From positions 1-5,327 of the forward strand of contig JAUXAI010000071.1 in assembly GCA_030619985.1 (NCBI GenBank): 5,327 nucleotides of DNA, read 5' to 3'. The notes below the pieces were generated by a model. That model saw nothing but the letters and a program-made list of their open reading frames with translations. It was not told where the DNA came from and did not search any database. The position numbers and the translations under genes are program-made. This document shows positions 1 through 5,327 of this stretch, in pieces (positions within the stretch are counted from its first letter, which is position 1; each line of letters opens with the position of its first letter). The DNA comes from a bacterium. GTDB lineage: Bacteria; UBP18; UBA7526.

Positions 1-906
1 GTCTATCTCATTGCTCTACCAAATGAAGGGCTCAAGATAAGTTATACCATTGACTTTGACCATCCGGTCCTGAGGACCCAGTTTGCTTCCTTTGTCATAA
101 ATGAGGATACCTTCGTAAAAGAAATCGCTCCCGCAAGGACCTTTGGCTTTGAGAGCGAAGTAAGGGAACTGAGGGAGAGGGGGCTCATTAAAGGAGGAAG
201 CCTGGAGAATGCCGTGGTCATCGGCGAGAAAGGAATATTGAATAAAGAACCCTTAAGGTTTCCCGATGAGTTTGTGCGCCACAAGATTCTCGATTTACTT
301 GGAGATTTATATCTCATCGGCCTCCCCCTTAAAGCCCATATCATTGCCTTAAAGAGTGGCCATGGGGCAAACGTGGAGCTGGTAAAGAAGATCCATAGCC
401 TGAAGAGAAAGAAGATTCCTTTAAAGAAAGAAATAGAAGAAATTCAGAAGAGGATAAGGACTAAAGAAATCTTAGATATTAAGGACATTCAGAAGATCCT
501 TCCCCATAGATATCCCTTCCTCTTAGTAGATAGGATCCTTGAACTCGAAGAGGATAAGAGGGCGGTGGGGATTAAAAATGTTTCAATAAATGAGGAGTTT
601 TTTCAGGGGCACTTTCCAGGCCATCCGGTTATGCCTGGGGTGCTCATCGTTGAGGCCATGGCCCAGGTAGGAGGAATTTTACTCCTATTGAAGCGAGAAC
701 ATTCCGGGAAACTGGCCTACTTTACAGGCATTGACAAGGTTCGTTTCAGAAAACCAGTAGTCCCCGGTGATACTTTGCGTCTCGAGGCAGAGGTGAGCAA
801 GATTAAAGGAAGAATGGGGAAGATGACCACCAGGGCCTATGTGGAGGATAAGTTAGTGGCTGGGGCAGAGCTCATGTTCGCTCTTGTCCTGAGGGAGGGG
901 GAATGA
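1..906 (+). CDS. lpxC/fabZ: Bifunctional LpxC/FabZ (UDP-3-O-acyl-GlcNAc deacetylase / 3-hydroxyacyl-ACP dehydratase), 5' end missing
   Basis: The frame is open from the first base, so the gene begins upstream; 301 residues are visible. Residues 1-130 are the C-terminal half of LpxC, the zinc deacetylase that commits UDP-3-O-acyl-GlcNAc to lipid A. ARTFGF is at 45-50. HKILDLLGD at 94-102 supplies zinc ligands His94 and Asp98 (E. coli His238, Asp242), and KSGH ends at His121 (E. coli His265). The third zinc ligand, E. coli His79, lies outside the window. A charged Lys/Glu linker (about 131-158) leads to a full FabZ hot-dog domain (159-301). It has [13 protein letters not shown], catalytic His204 in GHFPGHP, Glu218 in VEAMAQ, and the [11 protein letters not shown] strand. 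FabZ dehydrates 3-hydroxyacyl-ACP in the cytoplasm. The fusion is known from Bacteroidota/Chlorobiota and other diderms. The linker has no ATG, GTG or TTG, so a separate FabZ product looks unlikely. The stop is TGA at 904-906. Confidence 0.96.
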
Positions 907-907
907 C

Positions 908-924
908 CCCCGATTTCATCGGGG
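908..924 (+). other. Perfect 7-bp GC hairpin just after lpxC/fabZ stop
   Basis: CCCCGAT (908-914) pairs exactly with ATCGGGG (918-924) around a 3-nt TTC loop, starting one base after the lpxC/fabZ stop codon. No T tract follows; the next bases are AGTTCACAGTT. It is therefore not a canonical rho-independent terminator. An mRNA-stabilising hairpin, a weak attenuator or a dispersed intergenic repeat are all possible. The structure is seen; the role is unknown. Confidence 0.6.
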
Positions 925-925
925 A

Positions 926-985
926 GTTCACAGTTAACAGTTTACAGTAACCAGTTTTTTACTGTTCGCTAGTTACTGGTTACTT
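926..985 (+). repeat. Degenerate 7-bp-unit array with inverted repeat upstream of lpxA
   Basis: Four consecutive 7-bp units start at 926, 933, 940 and 947: GTTCACA, GTTAACA, GTTTACA, GTAACCA. After less regular sequence come GTTACTG (972) and GTTACTT (979). The two ends form a perfect 10-bp inverted repeat: AGTAACCAGT (946-955) against ACTGGTTACT (975-984). A smaller CAGT/ACTG hairpin (952-955 with 961-964) is an alternative fold. The 3' arm stops two bases before the lpxA Shine-Dalgarno sequence (986-991), so folding could affect ribosome access, which is inference. Confidence 0.6.
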
Positions 986-1002
986 AGGAGGTTTAACGAA
1001 AA

Positions 1003-1776
1003 ATGGGAATACATAGGACAGCCATTGTTCATAAGAAGGCAAAGATTAGTAAAGAAGTAAGCATCGGTCCTTATACCATTGTGGGGGAGAATGTAGAGAT
1101 TGGATATGGTTGCCAGATCGGTCCTCATGTCTTCCTTGATGGCTGGACAAAGATCGGTAAGAACTGTAAGATCCTTGCTCAATCAGCCATCGGCACTCCT
1201 CCTCAATATCTGGAATATAAGGGGGAGAAGACAAGGGTAGTAATTGGGGAGAATAACATCATCCGGGAGTTCGTGACCATCAATCGAGGAACAAAGGAGG
1301 GGGGAGGGGAGACGAAAATTGGGAATAATAACTTCCTTATGGCCTATGTTCACATTGCCCATGATTGTAGAATAGGGGATGGAGTTACCTTGGCCAATGT
1401 GGCTACCCTAGCAGGCCATGTAACTGTTGAGGACTATGCCGTCGTTGGAGGAATTGTGGCTGTTCATCAATATGTGCGCATCGGGGCATATGCGATGATC
1501 GGAGGGTTTTCTCCAGTCCGTAAGGATGTTATCCCCTACATTATAGGTGCCGGAGACCCTCTTCGAATATCAGGAATAAATACTATCGGGTTGAAGAGGC
1601 ACGGCTTCTCCCGTAAAGAGATTTCTATTCTAAAAGAGGCCTTTCGCCTCATCTTTCGCTCCAAACTCAACCTCTCCCAGGCAATAGAGAGAATCGAGAA
1701 GGAATTAGAGAAAACCGATTCCATAAGACACCTCTTGAAATTCTTGAAAACGAGCAAAAGGGGAATATGTAGATGA
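1003..1776 (+). CDS. lpxA: LpxA, acyl-ACP--UDP-N-acetylglucosamine O-acyltransferase
   Basis: LpxA transfers a 3-hydroxyacyl chain from ACP to the 3-position of UDP-GlcNAc, the first step of lipid A synthesis, as a cytoplasmic homotrimer. The 257 residues match the family length (E. coli 262). Residues 1-185 are a left-handed beta-helix of hexapeptide repeats (for example VSIGPY, VEIGYG, CRIGDG), followed by a helical C-terminal domain. His117 and catalytic His120 lie in HIAHDCRIGDG (E. coli His122/His125). His139 (LAGHV) and His155 (AVHQ) match E. coli His144/His160. GLKRHGFSR at 196-204 matches the conserved GLKRRGFSR, with the second Arg replaced by His200. Gly168 aligns with E. coli Gly173, the hydrocarbon-ruler position, which suggests a long (about C14) acyl chain; that is inference. 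The start is supported by AGGAGG at 986-991, 11 nt upstream. The 3' end overlaps lpxI by ATGA, implying translational coupling. Confidence 0.97.
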   Translation: MGIHRTAIVHKKAKISKEVSIGPYTIVGENVEIGYGCQIGPHVFLDGWTKIGKNCKILAQSAIGTPPQYLEYKGEKTRVVIGENNIIREFVTINRGTKEGGGETKIGNNNFLMAYVHIAHDCRIGDGVTLANVATLAGHVTVEDYAVVGGIVAVHQYVRIGAYAMIGGFSPVRKDVIPYIIGAGDPLRISGINTIGLKRHGFSRKEISILKEAFRLIFRSKLNLSQAIERIEKELEKTDSIRHLLKFLKTSKRGICR

Positions 1777-2588
1777 CGCAGGTGAAAAAGATAGGACTCC
1801 TTGCCGGCAAGGGAAAGTTTCCCCTCTTCTTCATTCGGGCTCTTCAGAAAGAGGGAAAGGAAGTGGTAGCAATTGGTATAAAGGGTGAGGCTTCTCCAAG
1901 AATAGAAAAGGAAATAGAAAAAGTTTACTGGATAGGATTGGGAGAGCTCGGAAAGTTAATCAAGATATTGAAAGAAGAAGGGATCGAAGAATTAGCTATG
2001 GTGGGGAGGATATCAAAGGATTCTCTATTCACCAATCTAAAACTGGATGATGAAGCAAGAGCCCTTCTCACTAATCTAAAGGATAAGAGCGACGATTCCC
2101 TACTAGGGGCGCTAAAGGATAAGTTAGCCCAAACAGGAGTAAGAGTAGCCGATCCCAGGGAGTTTCTTTCCCCGCTCATTCCTAAGGAAGGAGTCCTTAC
2201 TGAGAGGAAGCCTTCTCGGGAAGAGGAAGAGGATATGGATTTTGGCAGAAGAATAGCCAAAGAGATTGCCCGGGTTTTAAAAATGAGTTCCTTAACCGTG
2301 GTGGTCAAGGAGCAAACCATCTTAGCTGTAGAGAGCGCTGAAGGGACGGATAAGACCATAAGAAGGGGTGGAAGATTAGCAAAGGAGAAAGCGGTAGTGG
2401 TCAAGGTTGCCAGAGAAGAGGGTGAGATTCAGCTCGATCTACCTGTGGTGGGCACAGAGACCTTGAAGGCATTAAAAGAGATTAATGCTTCCTGTTTAGC
2501 TATCGATGCTCGGAAGACCGTCCTCTTGGATAGAGAGCGGCTCATCGAGATGGCTGATCAGGCAGGGATTGCTATCGTTGCCCAATAA
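1773..2588 (+). CDS. lpxI: LpxI, UDP-2,3-diacylglucosamine pyrophosphatase
   Basis: LpxI (formerly DUF1009) hydrolyses UDP-2,3-diacylglucosamine to 2,3-diacylglucosamine-1-phosphate (lipid X) and UMP. It replaces the unrelated LpxH in many non-enteric diderms. The protein is 271 residues, normal for the family. The N-terminal domain opens with KIGLLAGKGKFPL (6-18) and includes MVGRISKDSLF (76-86). The C-terminal domain carries AVESAEGTDKTIRRGG (185-200), typical of the family, and LDLPVVG (221-227). Asp222 there probably corresponds to the catalytic Asp225 of the Caulobacter enzyme; I infer this from position and motif, not from an alignment. The ATG at 1773 overlaps the lpxA stop (ATGA, 1773-1776). 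A purine-rich AAAAGGGGAA (1757-1766) lies about 6 nt upstream as ribosome binding site. Its place between lpxA and lpxB agrees with its role as the step feeding LpxB. Confidence 0.95.
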   Translation: MTQVKKIGLLAGKGKFPLFFIRALQKEGKEVVAIGIKGEASPRIEKEIEKVYWIGLGELGKLIKILKEEGIEELAMVGRISKDSLFTNLKLDDEARALLTNLKDKSDDSLLGALKDKLAQTGVRVADPREFLSPLIPKEGVLTERKPSREEEEDMDFGRRIAKEIARVLKMSSLTVVVKEQTILAVESAEGTDKTIRRGGRLAKEKAVVVKVAREEGEIQLDLPVVGTETLKALKEINASCLAIDARKTVLLDRERLIEMADQAGIAIVAQ

Positions 2589-2602
2589 AACAGAAGTTAG
2601 AA

Positions 2603-2747
2603 GTTAACAAGTCAATAAGTCAATAAGTTAACAAGTCAATAAGTCAACAAGTTGATTAGTTAACTAGTTGATTAGTTGACAAGTTTTGCTTGTTAACTTG
2701 TATCCTTGTCAACTTGTATCCTTGTTAACTTGTATACTTGTCAACTG
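2603..2747 (+). repeat. Array of about 18 degenerate 8-bp units that reverses polarity midway
   Basis: Most of this gap divides into 8-bp steps beginning GT: GTTAACAA, GTCAATAA (twice), GTTAACAA, GTCAATAA, GTCAACAA, GTTGATTA, GTTAACTA, GTTGATTA, GTTGACAA. Then comes one 9-bp step (2683-2691), followed by GTTAACTT, GTATCCTT, GTCAACTT, GTATCCTT, GTTAACTT, GTATACTT, GTCAACTG. The left half carries AACAAG-type units; the right half reads CTTGTTAAC, their reverse complement. The whole is therefore a long imperfect inverted repeat centred near a 10-bp palindrome, TAGTTAACTA (2657-2666). GTTAAC recurs at 2603, 2627, 2659, 2692 and 2724. It could fold as a long hairpin in the mRNA. There is no coding potential of note and no clear promoter. 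Confidence 0.85.
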
Positions 2748-2752
2748 ATTCG

Positions 2753-2758
2753 AAGGTG
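2753..2758 (+). promoter_or_regulatory. Shine-Dalgarno sequence fixing the start of the Gfo/Idh-LpxB gene at 2768
   Basis: AAGGTG lies 9 nt before the ATG at 2768. The alternative upstream in-frame start, a TTG at 2738, sits inside the 8-bp repeat array, would add ten residues (STDSKVKRN-like) with no family match, and has no purine-rich site in front of it. The Rossmann fold begins properly after the 2768 start (MTKPIKIAVIGVG). Confidence 0.7.
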
Positions 2759-2767
2759 AAGAGAAAT

Positions 2768-4834
2768 ATGACGAAGCCAATTAAAATAGCAGTAATTGGT
2801 GTGGGACACCTGGGACAGCATCACGCTCGGATCTACTCTGAGATGCCTGATGTGGAACTGGTGGCTGTGGTCGATATCGATGAAGAGAGGTCAAGGAGGA
2901 TCGCCCAGGAATATAAAACCTCTGCTTATACAGAATATACTCAAGTCTTAAAAAGAGTGGATGTTGCAAGCATCGCCGTTCCCACAGAACTCCATTATAA
3001 AATAAGTAAGGACTTTTTGAACACCGGGGTCCATATTCTGATTGAGAAGCCCATGACCCAGACTCTGGGAGAAGCAGACGAACTACTCAGATTAGCGAAG
3101 AAGAAGAAACTCGTTTTGCAGGTAGGTCATATTGAGAGATTCAATCCCGCGGTCTCCGCCCTGAATAGGGTAATCAAGGAGCCGAGGTTTATAGAATGCC
3201 ACCGCTTGGGCCCCTTCAAGCCCCGGGCGGCCAATATAGGAGTAGTCATGGATCTCATGATCCACGACATCGATATCATTCTCTCCCTGGTCAATTCACC
3301 GGTCAAGAGAATAGAGGCGGTAGGAGTACCTGTCCTCTCCCAGGAAGAGGACATTGCCAACACCCGAATCACATTTGAGAATGGCTGTATCGCAAATATC
3401 ACCGCCAGTCGCGTGACAAAAGAAGAGATCAGGAAGATAAGGATATTTCAGAGGGATGCCTATCTCTCTTTAGATTATATCAATCAGGAACTTTTAGTCT
3501 ATCGTCGGGAAATTACCCCAGATGGTAGGGTGAGGATCATCCCTTCCCAACCAGAGATTGAGAAGATAGAACCCTTAAAGTTGGAACTGGAGGCCTTTAT
3601 TCACGCCGTTCAGAGAGGCCAGGAACCCTTGGTTTCCGGAGAAGCAGGGAGGGAGGCGCTGGCCATTGCCTGGGAGATATCTCGTCAAATTAAGCCCCAG
3701 AGGAGGATCATGATTTTGGCCGGAGAGGCCAGTGGCGATCTCCAGGGAGCCTATCTTGTCCAAGAACTAAAGAATCTTTCTCCAGAGATAGAACTCTTTG
3801 GGATTGGGGGAAGGAGGATGGAGAAGGCCGGGGTGAGGCTGGTCTCTGATATTACCCAGATAGCAGTAGTCGGTTTCGTTGAGGTCCTGAAACATATTAA
3901 AGTCTTTCGTAGAATCCTCAAGAAGTTAGACGACCTTATGGAGAAGGAGAGGCCTCAGGGGATAATCTTAATCGATAATCCCGGGTTCAACTTGAGGGTG
4001 GCGAAGAAGGCCAGGGAGAAGAATATCCCGGTTAGCTATTACATCAGTCCCCAGGTCTGGGCCTGGGGAAAGAAAAGGGTAAAGAAGATCACCAATTTAG
4101 TGAAAAAGATGGTCGTCATCCTTCCCTTTGAGGAAAGAATTTATCAGGAAGCGGGTTGCCCGGTGAGTTTTATCGGCCATCCCTTCCTGGATATCGTTAA
4201 ACCTCTTCTTCCTAAGGAGGAAGCCTATGAGAGGTTCAAACTTGAGAAGAATAAACCCATCATTGGCCTCTTACCAGGTAGTAGAGAAGGAGAGATCAAG
4301 CGCCTCCTTCCAGTAATGGTTGAAACCGCAAAGAGAATAAAGGAAAGAATACCAGATTCTCAGTTCATCCTACCCCTGGCCCCCACCCTCTCCAGAGAAA
4401 GGGTGAATACTGTATTAAAGAGGGTAAATTCCTCTATTAGGATAGTGGAGGATCCTACCTTTGATGCGCGGAATATAATGGACTTTGCCCTGGTGGCCTC
4501 GGGAAGCGCTACTTTAGAGAACGCCTGTTTAGGCCTTCCCATGATTATTATCTATAAGGTCCATTTTACTACCTGGTTATTATCGAAGATCTTGTTAAAG
4601 ATTCCCTATATTGGATTGGTGAATGTCGTTGCCGGCAAGAAAATAGTTCCTGAGTTTCTGCAATACGGAGCAAGACCAGGGAGAATCGCAAACGCCTGTT
4701 TAGAAATCTTACAAGATATTGAAAGACTGAATGAGATGAGGGCCGAACTGGCCAAGGTAAAAGAGAAGTTAGGAGAACCTGGAGCACCGAGAAGAGCCGC
4801 GGAGAGCATCCTAAAAGTCTTAGAAGCAGTATGA
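2768..4834 (+). CDS. lpxB: Fusion of Gfo/Idh/MocA-family dehydrogenase (GnnA-like) and LpxB lipid-A-disaccharide synthase
   Basis: One 688-residue frame holds two full proteins. Residues 1-314 are an NAD(P)-dependent Gfo/Idh/MocA oxidoreductase: Rossmann GVGHLGQHH (11-19), acidic DID at 36-38, EKP (93-95) with catalytic-type Lys94, and DLMIHD with Asp162 and His166. GEAGREALAIAWEISRQI is the usual family ending. Residues 315-688 are LpxB, a GT-B (GT19) peripheral-membrane glycosyltransferase that joins lipid X to UDP-diacylglucosamine. It shows LAGEASGD (317-324), VVGFVEVL, the Asp of IDNPGFN (403; E. coli Asp98), SPQVWAWGKKRV, FIGHP, LLPGSREGEIKR with Arg506 (E. coli Arg201), ASGSATLE, and Asn619 in LVNVVAG (E. 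coli Asn316). LpxB alone is 374 residues (E. coli 382), so neither part is truncated. There is essentially no linker. The dehydrogenase recalls GnnA, encoded between lpxA and lpxB in Acidithiobacillus; its substrate here is unproven. The gene lies 179 nt after lpxI, separated by a repeat array. Confidence 0.93.
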   Translation: MTKPIKIAVIGVGHLGQHHARIYSEMPDVELVAVVDIDEERSRRIAQEYKTSAYTEYTQVLKRVDVASIAVPTELHYKISKDFLNTGVHILIEKPMTQTLGEADELLRLAKKKKLVLQVGHIERFNPAVSALNRVIKEPRFIECHRLGPFKPRAANIGVVMDLMIHDIDIILSLVNSPVKRIEAVGVPVLSQEEDIANTRITFENGCIANITASRVTKEEIRKIRIFQRDAYLSLDYINQELLVYRREITPDGRVRIIPSQPEIEKIEPLKLELEAFIHAVQRGQEPLVSGEAGREALAIAWEISRQIKPQRRIMILAGEASGDLQGAYLVQELKNLSPEIELFGIGGRRMEKAGVRLVSDITQIAVVGFVEVLKHIKVFRRILKKLDDLMEKERPQGIILIDNPGFNLRVAKKAREKNIPVSYYISPQVWAWGKKRVKKITNLVKKMVVILPFEERIYQEAGCPVSFIGHPFLDIVKPLLPKEEAYERFKLEKNKPIIGLLPGSREGEIKRLLPVMVETAKRIKERIPDSQFILPLAPTLSRERVNTVLKRVNSSIRIVEDPTFDARNIMDFALVASGSATLENACLGLPMIIIYKVHFTTWLLSKILLKIPYIGLVNVVAGKKIVPEFLQYGARPGRIANACLEILQDIERLNEMRAELAKVKEKLGEPGAPRRAAESILKVLEAV
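3701..3713 (+). promoter_or_regulatory. Internal ribosome binding site, LpxB ATG and out-of-frame ATGA overlap at the fusion junction
   Basis: AGGAGG (3701-3706) is followed after 3 nt by an in-frame ATG (3710) exactly where standalone LpxB proteins begin (MILAGEASGD). AGAGG at 3699-3703 gives a more normal 6-nt spacing. The same ATG is part of ATGA (3710-3713), whose TGA is in the +1-shifted frame. This is the arrangement expected of two translationally coupled genes, as at lpxA/lpxI in the same window. Confidence 0.6.
3710..4834 (+). other. lpxB: Possible separately translated LpxB (internal start within the fused gene)
   Basis: Initiation at the ATG at 3710 would give a 374-residue LpxB starting at the family's normal N-terminus, in the same frame as the fusion. 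The ribosome binding site in front of it makes independent translation plausible. The cell could then hold both the fused and the free form. This is an alternative reading of the gene at 2768-4834, not an additional gene; nothing in the sequence shows which product dominates. Confidence 0.4.
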
Positions 4835-4848
4835 AGACAGAGGGAGAT

Positions 4849-4980
4849 AAATTCCAAATTCCAAATACCAAATAACAAACAAATTCCAAATCTCAATTTC
4901 CCAAATTCCAAACAAAAAATGAATTGTTTCGGTCATTGTAATTTTGGTCATTGATTATTGTTTGTGATTTGTAATTTTAA
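4849..4980 (+). repeat. A-rich 7-bp-unit array (AAATTCC type) with inverted-polarity second half
   Basis: Left part (4849-4916): AAATTCC, AAATTCC, AAATACC, AAATAAC, AAAC, AAATTCC, AAATCTC, AATTTCCC, AAATTCC, AAACAAA, so mostly 7-bp steps. Right part (about 4921-4980) reads on the opposite strand as similar A-rich steps (AAATTAC, AAATCAC, AATGACC, AAAATTAC, AATGACC). Within it GGTCATTG occurs at 4931 and 4946 and TGTAATTTT at 4937 and 4970. The array fills most of the 173-nt gap between lpxB and msbA. No convincing promoter or T-tract terminator hairpin is visible. Confidence 0.75.
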
Positions 4981-5007
4981 CATCGTTCGTAAAGTAAGGA
5001 GAAAAAA

Positions 5008-5327
5008 ATGGGACTCTATAGAAGGCTATTAAGATACCTTAGACCATATAAGGGACGCTTCTTGGTTGCTTTAATCTGTATGTGGTTTGCGGCAATATTC
5101 TCTGGCTTTACTCTCGTTACCGGCCTTCCTCTGATGGGCAAGGTCCTCTCCCCAGAACCTATCGCCCTATTTGATGTTAAAGAACTGGGAGTGAAAGAGG
5201 AGCTTGTCCCTGACTATATCGCTAAACTCGAGAGAAGCTGGAAGGGGAGGGCCCAGGAGAAGCTCCTCTATTTTTATGAAAAGTATACCAGAAAAGAAGT
5301 CCTACTTTTCATCCTTGTTGCTATGGT
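5008..5327 (+). CDS. msbA: MsbA-like lipid A ABC exporter, N-terminal part only
   Basis: The frame runs off the right edge; 106 residues are visible. MsbA-type half-transporters fuse a six-helix membrane domain to an ATPase and flip lipid A core across the inner membrane. The start MGLYRRLLRYLRPYKGRF is the amphipathic elbow typical of the family. It is followed by a first transmembrane helix (about 18-40, LVALICMWFAAIFSGFTLV). A hydrophilic segment (about 45-97, including KELGVKEELVPDYIAKLE) precedes a second hydrophobic stretch starting near 98 (EVLLFILVAMV). That loop is longer than in E. coli MsbA. AAGGAG at 4996-5001 stands 6 nt before the ATG. The ATPase motifs are not in the window, so the assignment rests on the N-terminus and on following lpxB, a common position for msbA. 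A different type IV ABC exporter remains possible. Confidence 0.8.
   Translation, partial: MGLYRRLLRYLRPYKGRFLVALICMWFAAIFSGFTLVTGLPLMGKVLSPEPIALFDVKELGVKEELVPDYIAKLERSWKGRAQEKLLYFYEKYTRKEVLLFILVAM

What the first reader, a model, noticed from the sequence alone, without database searches (positions are those of the whole stretch)
2768..4834. Gfo/Idh/MocA dehydrogenase fused in frame to LpxB
The frame joins two complete enzymes, with motifs of both active sites intact (Lys94/Asp162/His166; Asp403/Arg506/Asn619) and no linker. Adjacent gnnA-like and lpxB genes are known, but I do not know of an established fused form. A physical link would tie the orphan dehydrogenase to the disaccharide-forming step and suggest that it acts on a lipid A precursor or channels one to LpxB.
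Basis: partly seen in the sequence, partly recalled or inferred. Interest (0 to 1): 0.72.

Follow-up and report, generated by a model that had tools for sequence, protein, structure and literature searches.

The report
GnnA-like dehydrogenase fused to LpxB
In one small family of uncultured bacteria, two neighbouring enzymes of endotoxin (lipid A) synthesis that are separate genes in nearly every related genome examined have become one continuous protein, probably when the stop signal between them was lost; it is a real but modest variation on known enzymes.

Summary
ATG2768-4834 is one clean 688-aa frame: a Gfo/Idh/MocA dehydrogenase (residues 1-308), four residues, then a complete LpxB (313-688) with its key residues intact. 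It is no sequencing slip: four other MAGs of the same family (three genera, 86-96% identity) carry it gap-free, under purifying selection across the join. The sixth family genome only has an assembly gap there. Elsewhere the genes are neighbours. In the closest unfused relative they share a frame and are parted by one TAA; about six codons holding that stop and the LpxB start are missing in the fusion. A second, independent fusion was seen in 1 of 384 Omnitrophota; a third apparent one is a frameshift artefact.

By sequence and fold the dehydrogenase is closest to GnnA (UDP-GlcNAc 3-dehydrogenase), the first step towards 2,3-diaminoglucose lipid A. A GnnB-like aminotransferase lies elsewhere in the genome. 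So: most likely a bifunctional GnnA-LpxB protein made by stop-codon loss in a co-translated gene pair. Enzyme activity, lipid A structure and single-chain translation remain untested.

The parts
2768..4834 (+). Fused gfo::lpxB open reading frame, 688 aa plus stop
   Evidence: conserved in G001, G002, G003, G005
2768..3691 (+). GnnA-like Gfo/Idh/MocA dehydrogenase half (residues 1-308); NAD-binding GxGHLG, EKP (Lys94), DLMIHD (Asp162, His166)
   Evidence: Pfam; best PDB match by sequence and fold GnnA 7bvj
3692..3703 (+). Four-residue junction KPQR (residues 309-312); in the nearest unfused relatives this place holds the gfo stop (TAA) and lpxB start (ATG)
3704..4831 (+). LpxB half (residues 313-688), lipid-A-disaccharide synthase; Glu320, Ser322, Asp403, Arg506, Asn619 match E. 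coli E15, S17, D98, R201, N316
3701..3712 (+). AGGAGG-ATC-ATG: Shine-Dalgarno-like run before in-frame Met315; possible but unlikely internal LpxB start
   Evidence: corresponds to an internal strand residue (KKLF) in unfused relatives
1..906 (+). lpxC/fabZ bifunctional gene, 5' end cut by the contig end
1003..1776 (+). lpxA
1773..2588 (+). lpxI (UDP-2,3-diacylglucosamine pyrophosphatase)
5008..5325 (+). Start of an msbA-like transporter gene, cut by the contig end. No Pfam hit on this fragment; the name rests on its operon position and the longer homologue in relatives

Best explanation
The gene encodes one bifunctional polypeptide. Its N-terminal half is a GnnA-type NAD-dependent UDP-GlcNAc 3-dehydrogenase and its C-terminal half is a working LpxB. 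It arose once, in the ancestor of this bacterial family, from two co-translated neighbours in the same frame, when about six codons holding the gfo stop and the lpxB start were lost (inferred by comparison with unfused relatives). Proposed working, inferred: the N-terminal half makes UDP-3-keto-GlcNAc; a DegT/GnnB-like aminotransferase encoded elsewhere turns it into UDP-GlcNAc3N; LpxA, LpxC/FabZ, LpxD and LpxI carry it on; and the LpxB half, several steps later, joins the two acylated sugars. The fusion fixes 1:1 production and co-location rather than passing a product directly between its two active sites.
For: Single frame with both families complete. All five family genomes that hold lpxB have the fusion, without gaps or stops at the join; over residues 296-325 synonymous change far exceeds replacement change, e.g. 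pS 0.38 and pN 0.07 against L005. Fused rows form a 100-supported clade (SH-aLRT) in both half-trees and in the joint tree. The closest unfused relatives by whole-length score (family f185, 53%) have the same gene order and read IKENLG*AMIKKLFIVAG where the fusion reads IKPQRRIMILAG. The dehydrogenase half's best sequence and fold match is GnnA 7bvj: E 9.7e-64, TM 0.93 to the target, 38% identity, against 16-23% for the other dehydrogenases listed. Real gnnA-gnnB pairs sit with lpx genes elsewhere (L086, L087, L089, L079), and own aminotransferase L111 is 45-48% identical to those GnnB-like proteins against 31-36% and 26-30% for the two others in the genome. The rest of the pathway is present: lpxK and lpxC in all six genomes and a kdtA-type gene downstream in relatives.
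Against: No enzyme activity or lipid A structure is known. The NCBIfam UDP-GlcNAc 3-dehydrogenase equivalog (built on archaeal enzymes) is matched at 274.7 bits, under its cut-off of 450. No gnnB in the operon; the trans candidate belongs to a large family and also resembles QdtB and WbpE. A strong ribosome-binding-like sequence precedes in-frame Met315. The domain order in space is not fixed by the model (pTM 0.61).
Confidence: 0.66

Rival explanations
1. The fused frame is real, but LpxB is also (or mainly) made as a separate protein by internal initiation at ATG3710 (Met315), so the fusion matters little.
For: AGGAGG lies just before ATG3710, the strongest such site of 25 in-frame internal ATGs in the window; a purine-rich GGAG or AGAGG stretch is present at this place in all five fused genomes.
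Against: The AGG codons encode the basic residues that are K-K in unfused relatives, and Met315 aligns with an internal strand residue there, not with their start. Among 65 unfused LpxBs none has its farthest possible start this close to the AGE motif; the minimum is 6 residues upstream. The spacing of 3 nt from AGGAGG to ATG is short.
Confidence: 0.15
2. The dehydrogenase half has a different substrate (another UDP-sugar, or a lipid A intermediate) and modifies lipid A in a way not yet described.
For: No gnnB beside it; in Omnitrophota the gfo-lpxB pair recurs in hundreds of genomes, in the fetched loci without a DegT gene between or beside them; equivalog cut-off for UDP-GlcNAc 3-dehydrogenase not reached.
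Against: Sequence and fold put it clearly nearest GnnA, and gammaproteobacterial gnnA-like genes beside gnnB score lower on the same model than this one does (233-239 against 274.7). LpxB's substrates are already acylated at position 3.
Confidence: 0.2
3. Assembly or sequencing error joins two genes.
For: Such cases exist: locus L039 (Sabulitectum) looks fused but its gfo end reads in another frame up to a TGA overlapping the lpxB ATG.
Against: Independent MAGs of five species and three genera share the join with the same frame, same length and synonymous divergence.
Confidence: 0.01

Closest known systems
GnnA of Acidithiobacillus ferrooxidans (UDP-N-acetylglucosamine 3-dehydrogenase, PDB 7bvj/7bvk)
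   Same: Fold and catalytic motifs of the N-terminal half; about 38% identity over 300 residues; also a lipid A precursor gene
   Different: Stand-alone enzyme paired with GnnB; here fused to LpxB and without a gnnB gene in the operon
E. coli LpxB, lipid-A-disaccharide synthase (PDB 5w8n/5w8s/5w8x)
   Same: C-terminal half, 28% identity in the structural alignment, key catalytic residues kept
   Different: E. coli LpxB is separate; here its start codon is gone and a dehydrogenase precedes strand 1
Adjacent gfo-lpxB gene pairs of Omnitrophota, Elusimicrobiota, Sumerlaeota and family f185
   Same: Same two genes in the same order, often overlapping or in the same frame with one stop between
   Different: Two polypeptides; one exception, G455/L130, is an independent fusion with a longer linker
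Bifunctional LpxC/FabZ (PRK13188, NF009667)
   Same: A fusion of neighbouring lipid A pathway genes, present in the same operon
   Different: A known, named architecture; the gfo::lpxB fusion has no model in Pfam or NCBIfam as searched here

Membership tests
LpxB (lipid-A-disaccharide synthase) | Whole-length match above the curated cut-off (TIGR00215, PF02684) | tested here: met
   297.2 bits against 190.25; PF02684 325 bits
LpxB (lipid-A-disaccharide synthase) | Catalytic/nucleotide residues E15, S17, D98, R201, N316 | tested here: met
   E320, S322, D403, R506, N619 by the alignment; residue roles from PMC5785501
LpxB (lipid-A-disaccharide synthase) | Disaccharide synthase activity | not testable with these tools
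   No assay
Gfo/Idh/MocA oxidoreductases | NAD-binding Rossmann domain plus C-terminal alpha/beta domain, EKP lysine | tested here: met
   PF01408, PF22725, PF02894; Lys94, Asp162 and His166 invariant
GnnA (UDP-GlcNAc 3-dehydrogenase) | Closest characterised relative is GnnA by sequence and fold | tested here: met
   7bvj top hit in both searches
GnnA (UDP-GlcNAc 3-dehydrogenase) | Curated equivalog cut-off (NF040723) | tested here: not met
   274.7 bits against 450; the model is of archaeal enzymes, and genes beside gnnB also fail it at 233-239 bits
GnnA (UDP-GlcNAc 3-dehydrogenase) | Partner aminotransferase GnnB | tested here: inconclusive
   Not in the operon; candidate at G000:C10:7691-8836 with orthologues in G001, G002, G003, family too broad to be sure
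GnnA (UDP-GlcNAc 3-dehydrogenase) | NAD-dependent oxidation of UDP-GlcNAc at C3 | not testable with these tools
   No assay

The most novel reading that the evidence does not exclude
The fusion is a regulated assembly that places sugar oxidation at the membrane next to LpxB, so that in this family (and, through the conserved gfo-lpxB pair, in Omnitrophota) lipid A backbone chemistry at C3 is controlled at the disaccharide step, possibly with a lipid A sugar not yet described.
Probability: 0.1. Interest if true: 0.65.

Novelty: new variant of a known kind. Interest (0 to 1): 0.36.

Why it matters
If the fused protein is made as one chain, it is a natural physical link between a GnnA-type dehydrogenase and LpxB. 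That strengthens the view that the gnnA-like genes beside lpxB, without gnnB, in many uncultured phyla belong to lipid A synthesis. It makes testable whether those phyla make 2,3-diaminoglucose (amide-linked) lipid A. It also shows a clear route to gene fusion: a same-frame neighbour pair one stop codon apart.

Tried and rejected
Assembly error as cause: rejected by five independent family genomes. Fusion in Sabulitectum L039: rejected as frameshift. Twenty other loci whose listed open frame suggested a fusion (Omnitrophota, Elusimicrobiota and others): all turned out to be separate genes, so that column was not used as evidence. Missing lpxB in G004 as a loss: rejected, because its lpxC runs off the contig end. 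Reading LpxA sugar choice (GlcNAc or GlcNAc3N) from residues: own LpxA has Gln-Tyr where E. coli has Gln73-Asp74, but LpxAs beside gnnB keep Asp, so nothing could be concluded. Naming GnnB by NCBIfam: no model exists. A 75-row alignment mixing single halves aligned badly and was replaced by one with paired genes read through the stop.

Full report
OBSERVATION. The window is contig G000:C68, bases 1-5327, of a 1.25-Mb, 91-contig draft genome, 84% complete. ATG2768 to the stop at 4834 is one frame of 688 codons. Pfam and NCBIfam find a whole Gfo/Idh/MocA dehydrogenase followed by a whole LpxB.

NOT AN ARTEFACT. Only five other genomes of the family are held. Four have the same fusion at 86-96% identity, in three genera; the same sequences appear as loci from other MAG projects, UBP18_UBA7526, HyVt-354 and CSMAG_2709. 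The join has no gap in any of them, and in residues 296-325 silent changes dominate (against L005: pS 0.38, pN 0.07). The fifth, G004, lacks any LpxB match, but its lpxC runs off the end of contig C48, so the region is simply missing from the assembly. By contrast the apparent fusion in L039 is a frameshift: the other frame ends its gfo in LRAAESIQAKSEQSIRHLR*, with the stop overlapping the lpxB ATG (read from the codons printed).

HOW WIDESPREAD. Of 110 loci examined first, apart from the family's and L039, none was fused; many have gfo and lpxB adjacent or overlapping, and some have lpxI or a DegT gene between them. In 384 Omnitrophota genomes, about 27 listed places have the two genes in the same frame, nearly all parted by one stop; one, G455, has none. 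Its sequence is a true 700-codon frame with its own linker, WKEKPVKTSPPIKHL, and it sits inside Omnitrophota in both trees, so it is an independent fusion, though seen in one genome only. A further 198 Elusimicrobiota and 386 genomes across bacteria showed no other fusion among the listed places; lists are truncated, so this is not proof of absence. Twenty suspicious cases were fetched and all were separate genes.

ORIGIN. The closest unfused sequences by whole-length score, G939 and G809 of family f185 (53% identity), have the order lpxD-like, lpxC, lpxA, lpxI, gfo, lpxB. Their two genes share a frame: KKIKENLG*AMIKKLFIVAGDPSGD, against RQIKPQRRIMILAGEASGD in the fusion. About six codons, holding the stop and the start, are absent in the fusion. 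In the joint tree the fused five form a 100-supported clade (SH-aLRT) among phyla with adjacent genes; its exact sister is not settled.

ONE CHAIN OR TWO? AGGAGG precedes ATG3710 (Met315) by 3 bases, the strongest such site among 25 internal in-frame ATGs of the window. But Met315 aligns with an internal strand residue of unfused LpxBs, the AGG codons encode basic residues that are lysines there, and of 65 unfused LpxBs none could start so close to the AGE motif. A single chain is more likely; some internal initiation is not excluded.

STRUCTURE. The AlphaFold2 model from 25 paired rows has mean pLDDT 89.3; the Gfo C-terminal helix ends at 308 and LpxB strand 1 starts at 313. pTM 0.61 leaves the mutual placement of the halves open. 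Foldseek puts GnnA of A. ferrooxidans (7bvj) first (TM 0.93 to the target, 38% identity) and LpxB of E. coli next. The 20-angstrom rmsd for LpxB probably reflects its C-terminally swapped dimer (PMC5785501) and my monomer model; this is inference.

FUNCTION. GnnA oxidises UDP-GlcNAc at C3 and GnnB aminates the product, giving lipid A with 2,3-diaminoglucose (PMC5644692, PMC8036547). Some loci fetched here have gnnA-like and DegT genes side by side with lpx genes (L079, L086, L087, L089). The window's operon has no DegT gene, but the genome has three full-length ones. One, C10:7691-8836, has orthologues in G001, G002 and G003 and is 45-48% identical to the gnnA-adjacent proteins; the other two are 31-36% and 26-30%. 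It is a candidate GnnB, no more. PMC5644692 reports gnnA and gnnB lying apart from each other in Mesorhizobium loti, so a partner in trans has a precedent. In family relatives the operon runs lpxD-like, lpxC/fabZ, lpxA, lpxI, gfo::lpxB, msbA-like, a DUF374 acyltransferase-like gene, a kdtA-type gene, and lpxK is present in all six genomes. The pathway therefore looks complete.

MECHANISM. Shown: the fusion, its conservation, its two intact halves, the operon. Inferred: GnnA-type activity of the first half, GnnB in trans, single-chain translation, benefit from fixed stoichiometry or co-location. Because the known GnnA step lies before LpxA and the LpxB step lies after LpxI, and because C3 of LpxB's substrates is already acylated, direct channelling between the two halves is unlikely.

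VERDICT. Real, conserved, apparently undescribed in the library searched, and mechanistically understandable: a new variant (gene fusion) of known enzymes, of moderate interest.

Noticed in passing
window 2589-2750: Array of 8-base units (AAGTTAAC/AAGTCAAT, then CTTGTTAA/CTTGTATC) forming a long imperfect inverted repeat just upstream of the fused gene; a DNA search finds 52 matches on many contigs of the same genome, so it is a genome-wide repeat family.
   Followed up: partly
window 4849-4919 and 4863-4977: A different A-rich intergenic repeat (AAATTCCAAATTCCAAATACC) with an inverted partner, downstream of the fused gene.
   Followed up: no
window 1-906: lpxC/fabZ fusion, a known architecture, so this operon carries two fusions of lipid A pathway genes; the missing lpxC start is probably on contig C57, whose lpxC fragment ends at profile position 182.
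   Followed up: partly
window 1003-1776: LpxA of the fused family has Gln-Tyr (Gln-Cys in L032) where E. coli has Gln73-Asp74, a position that is Asp in most but not all other LpxAs aligned; meaning unknown.
   Followed up: partly
L130 3162-5261 (G455, Omnitrophota): Independent in-frame gfo::lpxB fusion with a different, longer linker.
   Followed up: yes
L039 4001-6013: Apparent gfo::lpxB fusion in Candidatus Sabulitectum silens that is explained by frameshifts.
   Followed up: yes
G005:C63:16081-17091: lpxK match of one family genome contains an in-frame TAA, perhaps an assembly error.
   Followed up: no
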